Assembly (NCBI RefSeq): GCF_010731295.1
Contig: NZ_AP022579.1
Coordinates: forward strand, 434,001-498,000
Source: Mycolicibacterium boenickei
GTDB taxonomy: Bacteria > Actinomycetota > Actinomycetes > Mycobacteriales > Mycobacteriaceae
Length of the DNA stretch: 64,000 bases
Direction of reading: 5' to 3'
Shown one piece after another: positions 1-35,245 of the stretch. How positions within the stretch are numbered: position 1 is the first letter of the stretch; the number at the start of each line of letters is the position of its first letter. The notes under the pieces were generated by a model. The model did no database searches and was not told the DNA's origin. It saw only the letters and a program-made list of their open reading frames with translations. Made by a program: the position numbers and the translations under genes.

Positions 1-824
1 TTGACCGGCATCATCACGACGACCGAGCCGTCTGCGGCGACCCGTCCCACTCGCTGGGCGAGTCGGGCCGTAAATCCCGCAAGCAGCGCGGTGCTGCTGC
101 CGCCGAGTTCCTGTGCGCGGCCCTCCCACTCTTCGGCATCGACGAAGACCGTCGCCGTCGGGAGCGTGATGGGCTCGTCGATGCCTGCGGGCGGCGCAGA
201 TGGCGTGGCAGGCGGTTGTGTTGCAGCTCCGGCACCACCGCCGCTGCGCCGGGCCAAACGTATCGCGGCGACGAGCGCGCGGCCCATCGCAGGGATGTCG
301 CGCGCGGCTTGGCCGGCGTCCTCGCGCAAGGCCCGCAAGCGGCCACGCGATGCGGCAGGAGGCCAGCTGATCGGGTCGTCGCGCCCATGCGCGGCATCCG
401 CCAGCGCCTCACACAACCCGACGCCGTCGGTGAGGCAATGTGAGATGACAAAGCTCACCCCGGCGCCGCCGTCGGTGAACGGGAGGACCGCAAGATGCCA
501 TCCGGGACCGTGCTCGCAATCCAGTGGGGTCTTACTCTGCTCGGTGAGCCAGGCATCAAATTCTTCACGCGGGCGGGCCGACTCGACGATCTCAAGGTCG
601 GGTAGATGGTCGGGCGCTACCCAGCGGTGCCGACCGAACGGCAATGGCGACCGTGCGATGCGGCGGGACAACCGTCCCCGCTGAAGATGTTCATGGAACC
701 GCCGCAGCCCATCGATGTCGACCGCGCGGTTGTACACCCAGACACACTGCAGCAGACTGGGGCGTCCCGTCGCTCGCGATACGTCGAATATGGTCTGGTC
801 GAGCAAATCCAGTACATTGCTCAT
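1..824 (-). CDS. Condensation-fold acyltransferase, second copy (C-terminus off window)
   Basis: Reading the minus strand from an ATG at 824 gives MSNVLDLLDQ... and stays open to the window edge, so the 3' part is missing. The product is a close paralogue of the 1672-3069 gene: the same LLQxVWVYxR start region, the same LPFGRHRWVA stretch, and the active-site motif HCLTDGVG, a variant of the HHxxxDG of condensation, PapA and WS/DGAT acyltransferases. Such enzymes transfer an acyl group from CoA to a hydroxyl or amine. It is the last visible gene of the NRPS operon, 141 bp after the membrane methyltransferase. I infer that it O-acylates the peptide, probably one of two threonines. The first motif histidine is kept and the second is Cys, as in its paralogue. 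Upstream there is only a weak AGGG-type ribosome site. Confidence 0.8.
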   Translation of the reverse strand, partial: MSNVLDLLDQTIFDVSRATGRPSLLQCVWVYNRAVDIDGLRRFHEHLQRGRLSRRIARSPLPFGRHRWVAPDHLPDLEIVESARPREEFDAWLTEQSKTPLDCEHGPGWHLAVLPFTDGGAGVSFVISHCLTDGVGLCEALADAAHGRDDPISWPPAASRGRLRALREDAGQAARDIPAMGRALVAAIRLARRSGGGAGAATQPPATPSAPPAGIDEPITLPTATVFVDAEEWEGRAQELGGSSTALLAGFTARLAQRVGRVAADGSVVVMMPV

Positions 825-965
825 TTTCGAACTGTATCTGCCCTGATTTTCTCTGTCTCGTGTTTGCAGGTGGTCAGCGTCGTCCGATGCCGCTGACATC
901 TTGGGTGGCAGCCATTCCCATGTCGCGCGGAGAAAACGCTGCTACCGGGCGATCTCCTTCCGTCG

Positions 966-1640
966 TCACCAGACCAGTGGCACGAGCCGGTAGTGCACCT
1001 TCTGCGTGTACTCCCGATATCCGGCGAGCTGCTGGCGAAGCAGCTTCTCCTCGTCCTGGATACGGAAGGCATACAGAGTGAGGACGGGAATGAGAACTGC
1101 CAGCCCCCACCATGATCCAAGCGCGAGCGGCATTCCCGCCACCATGAGCAGCGCCCCCATGTACATCGGATGCCGCACAAGCCCGTACAGGCCGGTGGAG
1201 ACCAGCTTCTGCTCCGACTCCACCGTGATGTTGGCTGACGCATACCTGTTCTGGACGATCGTGAATATCGTGATCACGAGGCCGATGACGAACATCGCGT
1301 TGCCGATCCACGACACCGCGGCAGGCACCGGGGACCAACCGAAGCGATGATCGAGGCCGCAGAACACCGGCAGCGCAATGGACAAGACCGCGATGACCCC
1401 GAGGACGGCCTTCTGCACCGGTCTCGACTCTGACTTCCGCCCGACGCGCATGCGCCGCTCTACGACCGCCTTGTCCTTCCTCAACAGGTAGACGGTCGAG
1501 AGACTCGCCATCACCGCGTACACCGTCAGGAAAACCCATGCCTGCCAGTAGTTGAACGTCCCCGCGGGCACGAACAGCAGCGCACAGAACAACGCCACGC
1601 CCAAGACGGATTGGACAGCCACCCGAAGATTGGTGCTCAT
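966..1640 (-). CDS. Isoprenylcysteine carboxyl methyltransferase-family membrane protein
   Basis: A 224-aa protein with about five hydrophobic segments and the family hallmark GLYGLVRHPMYMG near residue 155, followed by a basic-acidic RIQDEEKLL and Y-x-x-Y segment near the C-terminus. This is the SAM-binding half of ICMT/PEMT-type membrane methyltransferases. Known members methylate carboxylates (ICMT) or phospholipid amines. A strong ribosome site (AGGAG, 7 nt before the ATG) supports the start. It lies 31 bp after one acyltransferase and 141 bp before another in the NRPS operon. I infer that it forms the C-terminal methyl ester of the released lipopeptide. An unrelated small-molecule methyltransferase cannot be excluded by sequence alone. 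Confidence 0.82.
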   Translation of the reverse strand: MSTNLRVAVQSVLGVALFCALLFVPAGTFNYWQAWVFLTVYAVMASLSTVYLLRKDKAVVERRMRVGRKSESRPVQKAVLGVIAVLSIALPVFCGLDHRFGWSPVPAAVSWIGNAMFVIGLVITIFTIVQNRYASANITVESEQKLVSTGLYGLVRHPMYMGALLMVAGMPLALGSWWGLAVLIPVLTLYAFRIQDEEKLLRQQLAGYREYTQKVHYRLVPLVW

Positions 1641-34971: not shown

Positions 34972-35014
34972 CAGACTCTCCCACCGCGAATTCTTCTGTT
35001 AGCCCCCCGGCCCT

Positions 35015-35245
35015 TCAGCTGTCAGACCCCTGGCTCTGCGCCAACCTGTCGCGCAGGCTCTTCGGCCGGATATCCGGCCAGTTCTGTTCGATGTAGTCGA
35101 GACACGCCGCTCGGTCAGCTTCGCCGTACGCCACCTTCCAGCCGGCCGGAACATCGGCGAAGGTCGGCCACAGGCTGTGTTGCTCCTCATCGTTGATAAG
35201 GACAAGAAAACGACCGTTGTCGTCGTCAAACGGATTGATGCTCAC
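35015..35245 (-). CDS. MbtH-like NRPS accessory protein
   Basis: A 76-aa protein with the complete MbtH signature: NPFDDDNGRF at the start, then QHSLWP, VPAGW and, near the end, RPKSLRDRL. MbtH proteins bind adenylation domains and help them fold and work. An ATG exists at 35260, but the GTG at 35245 has a strong GGGGAGG site 6 nt upstream and gives the usual family start (MSINPFDDD), so I chose it. It is the first gene of the operon, 43 bp before the 6525-aa synthetase, which fits a dedicated partner of this assembly line. Confidence 0.95.
   Translation of the reverse strand: MSINPFDDDNGRFLVLINDEEQHSLWPTFADVPAGWKVAYGEADRAACLDYIEQNWPDIRPKSLRDRLAQSQGSDS

What the first reader, a model, noticed from the sequence alone, without database searches (positions are those of the whole stretch)
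1..35245. Apparent complete assembly line for the lipopeptide fortuitine
The two NRPSs hold nine modules in the order acyl-starter C, then A1..A9, then TE. Modules 2 and 5, and only these, have N-methyltransferase inserts. Hand-read pocket codes group as 1=3=4, 2 similar to 5, 6=7, 8, 9; modules 6 and 7 differ from the threonine code at two positions. Fortuitine, the M. fortuitum acyl-nonapeptide methyl ester known since the 1960s, is as I recall acyl-Val-MeLeu-Val-Val-MeLeu-Thr(Ac)-Thr(Ac)-Ala-Pro-OMe. Every constraint matches: length, two N-methyl positions, three identical residues at 1, 3 and 4, the Thr pair, and acyl start. I know of no published gene assignment, so this may be the undescribed system of the window.
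Basis: partly seen in the sequence, partly recalled or inferred. Interest (0 to 1): 0.96.

Follow-up and report, generated by a model that had tools for sequence, protein, structure and literature searches.

The report
Fortuitine lipopeptide synthetase genes with fork
The genes look like the assembly line for fortuitine, a fatty nine-residue peptide known from Mycobacterium fortuitum since the 1960s, and next to it lies a second, interchangeable last half that probably lets the same bacterium make a second version.

Summary
Two synthetases carry nine modules: starter C, A1-A9, N-methyltransferases in modules 2 and 5 only, no epimerase, one thioesterase. Pocket codes group as 1=3=4, 2~5, 6=7, 8, 9. 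Codes 6 and 7 equal the Thr code of the glycopeptidolipid synthetase; code 8 equals the Ala code of a GL8P-type synthetase. Behind them lie acyltransferases and a methyltransferase of the carboxyl-methylating ICMT family, as a methyl ester with two O-acetyl-Thr needs. Not shown: Val, Leu and Pro pockets; any chemistry. New: left of the window lies a second A-first, TE-ended synthetase. Each of 8 genomes read has two such terminators beside one donor synthetase (broken in one assembly): the first constant (Thr-Thr-Ala-X), the second variable, with similar entry segments. I read this as a forked assembly line. Fortuitine assignment about 0.85; fork about 0.6.

The parts
15394..34971 (-). NRPS1, 6525 aa: starter C-A1-T, C-A2-MT-T, C-A3-T, C-A4-T, C-A5-MT-T, lone C
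3131..15397 (-). NRPS2a, 4088 aa: A6-T, C-A7-T, C-A8-T, C-A9-T, TE
33649..34959 (-). starter condensation domain (outlier, 155.8 bits)
   Evidence: genome coordinates converted to window
32155..33609 (-). A1, DYWSMAGVY (Val by fortuitine; not calibrated); span approximate
29167..30411 (-). A2 (part before the MT insert), DAFLVGAIW (Leu by fortuitine; not calibrated); span approximate
28582..28881 (-). N-methyltransferase of module 2 (PF08242 stretch)
24571..26025 (-). A3, DYWSMAGVY; span approximate
21412..22866 (-). A4, DYWSMAGVY; span approximate
18454..19698 (-). A5 (part before the MT insert), DAFIAGLIW; span approximate
17872..18171 (-). N-methyltransferase of module 5 (PF08242 stretch)
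15388..16740 (-). lone C domain at the end of NRPS1: taken to condense onto residue 6 loaded on a terminating synthetase (the scan's match runs 6 bases past the last codon of NRPS1)
   Evidence: coordinates converted
13796..15289 (-). A6, DYWSVGMVH = Thr; span approximate
10580..12085 (-). A7, DYWSVGMVH = Thr; span approximate
7400..8869 (-). A8, DVWSVAAVY = Ala; span approximate
4253..5692 (-). A9, DVWNVAGWY with a one-residue deletion before position 330 (Pro by fortuitine; not calibrated); span approximate
3182..3943 (-). thioesterase domain of NRPS2a
35015..35260 (-). MbtH-like protein, 81 aa (PF03621, 100.8 bits); relatives of 81-94% at the same place in the seven other fortuitum-complex genomes read
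1672..3069 (-). AT1, WS/DGAT-PapA-like acyltransferase, 465 aa; His148 and Asp152 invariant in 11 of 11 aligned; proposed Thr O-acetyltransferase
966..1640 (-). ICMT/PEMT-family membrane methyltransferase, 224 aa; proposed C-terminal carboxyl methylation
3..899 (-). AT2, second WS/DGAT-like acyltransferase, cut by the window edge (470 aa in full, G000:C1:433487-434899)

Best explanation
The locus makes fortuitine or its close equivalent. A fatty-acid AMP ligase and a one-module PKS at the far end of the locus are taken to prepare a C18-C22 acyl chain (inferred). The starter C of NRPS1 puts it on residue 1. NRPS1 builds acyl-Val-MeLeu-Val-Val-MeLeu, its two MT domains methylating residues 2 and 5. 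Its lone last C joins this to Thr held by NRPS2a, which adds Thr-Thr-Ala-Pro and releases the chain by its thioesterase. The ICMT-family enzyme then methylates the new carboxyl end, and AT1 with one partner acetylates the two Thr side chains. Shown by sequence: module order, MT positions, Thr/Thr/Ala codes, gene order. Inferred: Val, Leu and Pro identities, the roles of ICMT and acyltransferases, and that the strain makes the compound. Extension: NRPS1 also hands its acyl-pentapeptide to a second A-first terminating synthetase outside the window (Thr-Thr-Thr-X here), giving a second lipopeptide.
For: Nine modules, MT at 2 and 5 only, no epimerase. A6/A7 code identical at 9 of 9 positions to module 2 of the GPL synthetase (Thr, recalled) and A8 identical to module 2 of a GL8P-type synthetase; GL8P is T-A-F-I-Y-L-T-T by NMR in PMC11978893. 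Code transfer checked on an independent locus: the first five modules of an eight-module synthetase in G364 read Phe-MeX-Ile-Phe(near)-Ala, the order of L5P (Phe-MeVal-Ile-Phe-Ala, PMC8103206 passages); its MeVal code DAGIVVGIW differs from A2/A5, so A2/A5 are not that MeVal type. MbtH-NRPS1-NRPS2a-AT1-ICMT in the same order in 8 of 8 fortuitum-complex genomes read (NRPS1 is short and split over contigs in G300, and the frame of NRPS2a ends early in G239). G348 carries DFWSMAGVY at 1, 3, 4, DAFLVGAIW at 2 and 5, Thr, Thr, Ala, DVWNVAGWY, and its class A beta-lactamase is 260/262 identical to PDB 2cc1 of M. fortuitum. Two acyltransferases of this family were found in the 60 kb of G348 read (E 1e-20). 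An ICMT homologue (50%) lies directly behind one of the two GL8P-type synthetases (G088), and the formulas reported for both GL8P forms hold one CH2 more than the free acid described in the text, which a methyl ester would explain.
Against: No calibrator for DYWSMAGVY, DAFLVGAIW or DVWNVAGWY. A9 lacks the Gln239 shared by most Pro pockets (59 of 71 with Val236 and Gln239, PMC12283262 passage) and has a deletion in the pocket loop. In the window's own genome A2 and A5 differ at 3 of 9 positions. G239 and G273 have a Leu-like code at position 4. The L5P-type locus has no ICMT homologue in the 48 kb read although L5P is a methyl ester (PMC8103206 passage), and none was found beside the second GL8P-type locus (G092). 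ICMT-like genes are common: 335 of 396 genus genomes have one at E<=1e-40. The window's genome has four acyltransferases of this kind besides AT1, not one. Fortuitine's sequence is recalled. No chemistry.
Confidence: 0.85

Rival explanations
1. The locus makes a close relative of fortuitine (same N-terminal half, another residue at position 9 or Ile for Leu or Val) rather than fortuitine itself.
For: Positions 1-5 and 9 have uncalibrated codes; A9 is not a canonical Pro pocket; related loci in other mycobacteria keep a similar first half and change the rest.
Against: The equality pattern 1=3=4, 2=5, 6=7 is exact in G348, the genome that a marker points to as M. fortuitum, the species fortuitine is known from.
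Confidence: 0.12
2. The second synthetase left of the window is a relic or acts alone, and only the fortuitine branch works.
For: It is 96-99% identical to NRPS2a over three of seventeen 250-column blocks, as a recent duplicate or gene conversion would be; no expression data.
Against: Open over 4093 codons with all domains and a TE. A second A-first TE-ended synthetase stands in 8 of 8 genomes with differing module contents, and the condensation domains of the window's genome show no other likely donor synthetase. Entry segments match.
Confidence: 0.3
3. The product is a macrocyclic lactone released onto a Thr hydroxyl, not a linear methyl ester.
For: TE domains can cyclise, and Thr residues are available (general knowledge).
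Against: An ICMT-family gene is conserved directly behind AT1 in 8 of 8 genomes; a lactone has no free carboxyl for it. Fortuitine is titled a methyl ester.
Confidence: 0.05

Closest known systems
Fortuitine (Barber, Jolles, Vilkas, Lederer 1965; acylnonapeptide methyl ester; only the title seen)
   Same: Nine residues, two N-methyl positions, class pattern 3-2-2-1-1 in the recalled order, Thr-Thr-Ala confirmed by codes, genes fitting methyl ester and O-acetyl groups
   Different: No gene assignment found in the library searched; Val, Leu and Pro pockets not confirmed; the window's genome is a sister species
GL8P of M. abscessus (PMC11978893; MAB_4691c/MAB_4690c)
   Same: Mycobacterial lipopeptide from two NRPSs with MbtH; identical Ala code, and Thr codes one residue apart; N-acyl C18/C20; ICMT homologue directly behind the synthetase in one of the two GL8P-type loci read
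   Different: Octapeptide with D residues and rhamnoses; no second terminator seen and no DGAT-like acyltransferase found in the stretches read
L5P / lipooctapeptide of the M. avium complex (PMC8103206 passages)
   Same: Acyl peptide methyl ester with one N-methyl residue, same code vocabulary
   Different: Other residues, one synthetase in the L5P-type locus read; no ICMT homologue in its 48 kb
Glycopeptidolipid locus (mps1-mps2-gap)
   Same: FAAL, PKS, Gap, MmpL, MbtH company (mostly recalled; Gap and MbtH seen); Thr code identical
   Different: Tripeptide-amino alcohol, sugars (recalled)
Anabaenopeptin synthetase with two alternative starter modules (PMC8402340 passages)
   Same: Alternative parts at one end of the line give product variants
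   Different: There the fork is at the start; here it is at the end

Membership tests
Fortuitine assembly line | Nine modules ending in a release domain | tested here: met
Fortuitine assembly line | N-methylation at residues 2 and 5 only | tested here: met
   no MT match in NRPS2a
Fortuitine assembly line | Same residue at 1, 3, 4 and same residue at 2, 5 | tested here: met
   1=3=4 exact in G000, G297, G124, G231, G348; position 4 differs in G239 and G273; not readable in G300. 2 and 5 identical in 4 of the 7 genomes where both were read (G124, G239, G273, G348), similar in G000, G297, G231
Fortuitine assembly line | Thr at 6 and 7 | tested here: met
   9 of 9 code positions equal to the GPL Thr module
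Fortuitine assembly line | Ala at 8 | tested here: met
   9 of 9 code positions equal to the GL8P Ala module
Fortuitine assembly line | Pro at 9 | tested here: inconclusive
   DVWNVAGWY matches no calibrator; not the usual Pro code
Fortuitine assembly line | Val at 1, 3, 4 and Leu at 2, 5 | tested here: inconclusive
   no calibrator; A2/A5 differ from the MeVal code of the L5P-type locus
Fortuitine assembly line | Fatty acyl start | tested here: met
   outlier starter C and a FAAL in the locus; chain length not testable
Fortuitine assembly line | Enzyme for a carboxyl methyl ester | tested here: inconclusive
   ICMT/PEMT family gene adjacent and conserved; activity not testable
Fortuitine assembly line | Enzymes for two O-acetyl groups | tested here: inconclusive
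   acyltransferase fold, His148/Asp152 invariant; AT1 and AT5 only in 5 of 8 genomes, more in the other 3; acyl donor unknown
Fortuitine assembly line | Present in M. fortuitum | tested here: met
   G348, taken as M. fortuitum from a beta-lactamase 260/262 identical to 2cc1, has the core; the handle itself is unnamed
Fortuitine assembly line | Compound made by the strain and lost on gene removal | not testable with these tools
   needs culture and MS
Glycopeptidolipid (GPL) locus | Four modules with epimerases and reductive release (recalled) | tested here: not met
   nine modules, TE, C count leaves no epimerase

The most novel reading that the evidence does not exclude
A forked assembly line: one acyl-pentapeptide synthetase ending in a lone C domain feeds two A-first terminating synthetases in the same locus, one constant in the fortuitum complex (Thr-Thr-Ala-X) and one that is swapped between species (Thr-Thr-Thr-X; V*-Ala-MeX-X; Thr-Ala-Leu-X; Thr-Ala-Thr-V*), each arriving with its own tailoring genes. 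Terminators are exchangeable cassettes, so each species makes a pair of surface lipopeptides with a shared head and different tails.
Probability: 0.6. Interest if true: 0.75.

Novelty: new variant of a known kind. Interest (0 to 1): 0.68.

Why it matters
Fortuitine was one of the first natural peptides sequenced by mass spectrometry (recalled), and in the open-licence library searched I found no assignment of its genes. Naming them makes its origin, surface role and spread testable by gene removal. The genes also predict, species by species, a second lipopeptide, and offer a natural case of a synthetase that branches at its end. A similar locus frame (MbtH-NRPS1-terminator-Gap-PKS-FAAL-MmpL) recurs in other mycobacteria with other tails, so the assignment gives a handle on a family of mycobacterial surface lipids, related in kind to GL8P, which is reported to matter in M. 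abscessus infection (PMC11978893).

Tried and rejected
Solved-structure search with A9 lists general NRPS A domains and says nothing on Pro. The paper search for exact codes found two papers, with the Thr codes DFWSVGMVH and DFWNVGMVH only. Plasmid matching of the genome's second contig gave at best 65% covered at 88% identity, so no species name. The idea that the window is M. fortuitum itself was dropped: its beta-lactamase scores 492.8 bits against 2cc1, G348's 568.9. The first script readings of positions 299/301 were partly wrong or missing and were replaced by alignment-based codes. A search of print on alternative NRPS termination with six phrases gave 0 papers, which only says that those phrases are absent. 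Rfam found nothing in the window at gathering scores. Not read: G336 and G049, which also hold close MT domains (G336 also the ICMT). L022 and L023 (the synthetase region at 3.6 Mb) were fetched and not analysed. The 16 further genomes were chosen for open frames near 6530 aa (two longer) with two MT hits, so they are not a random sample; five of them were read over 20 kb only.
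Full report
WHAT IS THERE. Two synthetase genes on the minus strand, 15394-34971 and 3131-15397, overlap by four bases. Motifs and Pfam give starter C-A1-T, C-A2-MT-T, C-A3-T, C-A4-T, C-A5-MT-T and a lone C in the first, and A6-T, C-A7-T, C-A8-T, C-A9-T-TE in the second. A whole-genome scan for condensation domains finds six in the first and three in the second, one per module, so there is no room for epimerases. 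The first C is the outlier in score (155.8 bits against 293-330 for the other five), as expected of an acyl starter. An 81-aa MbtH-like gene lies upstream. Downstream follow a WS/DGAT-like acyltransferase (AT1), an ICMT/PEMT-family methyltransferase and a second acyltransferase cut by the window edge.

POCKET CODES. From an alignment of 122 A domains: A1=A3=A4 DYWSMAGVY; A2 DAFLVGAIW; A5 DAFIAGLIW; A6=A7 DYWSVGMVH; A8 DVWSVAAVY; A9 DVWNVAGWY, with one residue deleted before position 330. To read them I used mycobacterial synthetases of known product. A6 and A7 equal the GPL Thr code at nine of nine positions; A8 equals the GL8P Ala code at nine of nine. Taking that locus for an L5P relative rests on this order alone; L5P itself has five residues. 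On that reading, code transfer between mycobacterial loci works on an independent case (three exact, one near), and the MeVal code, DAGIVVGIW, is unlike A2/A5. Val, Leu and Pro remain unproven here; A9 is not a usual Pro pocket (PMC12283262 passage).

TAILORING GENES. In 8 of 8 genomes of this group that I read, the order MbtH-NRPS1-NRPS2a-AT1-ICMT is kept, with AT1 79-85% and ICMT 83-94% identical to the window in the other seven. Two blemishes: in G300 only about 9 kb lie between MbtH and NRPS2a, without runs of N, and a piece with the module-2 MT is on another contig, so NRPS1 looks collapsed or broken in that assembly; in G239 the NRPS2a frame ends at 3727 aa without a TE motif. ICMT enzymes methylate carboxyl groups (family knowledge), and fortuitine is an acylnonapeptide methyl ester by the title of the 1965 paper. 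An ICMT homologue (50%) also lies directly behind the GL8P-type synthetase of G088, though none was found in the stretch read of G092. The formulas printed for GL8Pa and GL8Pb exceed the free acid described in the text by one CH2 each; a methyl ester would explain this, but figures were not visible to me. Against: the L5P-type locus has no ICMT homologue in the 48 kb read, and ICMT-like genes are common in the genus (335 of 396 genomes at E<=1e-40). AT1 is predicted with moderate confidence (mean pLDDT 67.4) to have the condensation-domain/PapA5/WS-DGAT fold, and His148 and Asp152 are invariant in 11 of 11 sequences aligned. Five of the eight genomes (G124, G231, G239, G273, G348) show two acyltransferases of this kind in the 60 kb read, AT1 and AT5, which fits two acetylated Thr; the three with the Thr-Thr-Thr terminator show more (G000 five, G300 four, G297 at least five).

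SPECIES. Named relatives of AT1 at 80-85% are in M. houstonense, M. setense and M. septicum. The class A beta-lactamase of PDB 2cc1 is from M. fortuitum (PMC10868456 passage). G348 matches it at 260 of 262 positions (568.9 bits), against 507.8 for G124, 497.3 for G297 and 492.8 for the window's genome (these four of nine orthologues were compared). So G348 is most likely M. fortuitum and the window a sister species. In G348 the codes are DFWSMAGVY at 1, 3 and 4, DAFLVGAIW at 2 and 5, DYWSVGMVH at 6 and 7, DVWSVAAVY, DVWNVAGWY: the equality pattern of fortuitine is exact there, and G348 is the only one of the eight where all three equalities are exact. With classes of size 3,2,2,1,1 only 1 of 15120 orders would fit.

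THE FORK. The locus continues left of the window. In the window's genome a second synthetase (G000:C1:418240-430521, 4093 aa) starts with an A domain, ends with a TE, and reads Thr-Thr-Thr-DVWNVGGWY. The genome scan shows no other likely feeder: the remaining condensation domains lie at 3.62-3.64 Mb (not examined further) and in two frames of 485 and 488 aa. Each of the 8 genomes read has one donor NRPS1 (broken in G300) and two A-first terminators; a TE motif was found in 15 of these 16 (not in the first of G239). The first terminator is constant in kind (Thr, Thr, Ala, DVWNVAGWY). The second varies: Thr-Thr-Thr-X (G000, G297, G300), V*-Ala-MeX-X (G239, G231, G273), Thr-Ala-Leu-X (G124), Thr-Ala-Thr-V* (G348), where V* is the A1 code. 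Both kinds start with a similar entry segment; the first 32 residues are 69-91% identical within a genome in the 7 of 8 genomes where the script found both (the eighth, G124, is alike by eye). Entry segments agree at 80% on average with each other and 55% with 36 internal C-A linkers. The Thr-Thr-Thr terminator comes with extra acyltransferases and an ornithine-cyclodeaminase-family gene; the other five genomes have a second ICMT homologue at 47-50%. So I propose that NRPS1 hands its acyl-pentapeptide to either terminator. This is inferred from sequence; an idle or relic second synthetase is the main rival.

WIDER FAMILY. Sixteen further genomes chosen were read, five of them over 20 kb only and one of those lacking module 1. 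Most show a five-module NRPS1 with MT domains in modules 2 and 5; in three the script's motif missed one of the two MTs that one search reports, and G020 has six modules. Terminators were in reach in eleven; none of these had Thr-Thr-Ala-DVWNVAGWY (in G299 one code could not be read), and G252 also has two terminators. The frame MbtH-NRPS1-terminator-Gap-PKS-FAAL-hydrolase-MmpL-MmpL recurs in most of those read over 56 kb or more, not in G040. The FAAL and one-module PKS probably supply the acyl chain; this was not tested.

WHAT IS KNOWN. In the open-licence library, 'fortuitine' occurs in one paper, in a reference title. Other searches listed no gene assignment; one search matched 915 papers of which 10 were listed. 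Subscription papers and supplements were out of reach, among them Data S1 of PMC11978893, which by its text covers second lipopeptide loci across species and may include a computed prediction for this one. The nearest precedent that I found for a line with alternative ends is anabaenopeptin, with two alternative starters (PMC8402340 passages).

VERDICT.

Noticed in passing
G000:C1:415800-416930 (L145:3800-4930, minus strand), left of the window: An ornithine cyclodeaminase/mu-crystallin family gene (PF02423) sits between two acyltransferases behind the Thr-Thr-Thr terminator; relatives at 89-90% in G297 and G300 only among the other seven genomes. It could supply Pro or a modified residue.
   Followed up: partly
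G000:C1:414423-415766 (L145:2423-3766): AT4 reads SRFLTDG where AT1, AT2, AT3 and AT5 have SHCLxDG (translations), so it may have lost its catalytic His.
   Followed up: no
G000:C1:432211-433233: A ketoacyl-ACP synthase III-like gene lies between AT2 and the second terminator; a relative (93%) was found in G297 only among the other seven genomes.
   Followed up: partly
window NRPS1, A3 and A4 (about 21400-26000): The two A domains are identical at 416 of 430 residues from motif A3 on, as after a recent duplication or gene conversion.
   Followed up: partly
G239:C3:1031726-1042906: The fortuitine-type terminator of G239 has no thioesterase motif within its open frame (3727 aa), unlike the other seven.
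   Followed up: no
window 35300-36430: About 1.1 kb without a convincing gene between MbtH and a RecQ-like helicase; Rfam finds no RNA family in the window at gathering scores.
   Followed up: partly
window 36439-38535: RecQ-like helicase with a weak phosphoribosyltransferase-like tail; a relative flanks this lipopeptide locus in several other mycobacteria, though on the MmpL side in G280, G012 and G262.
   Followed up: no
PMC11978893, GL8Pa and GL8Pb formulas: Both printed formulas hold one CH2 more than the free-acid structure given in the text; a C-terminal methyl ester would account for it.
   Followed up: partly
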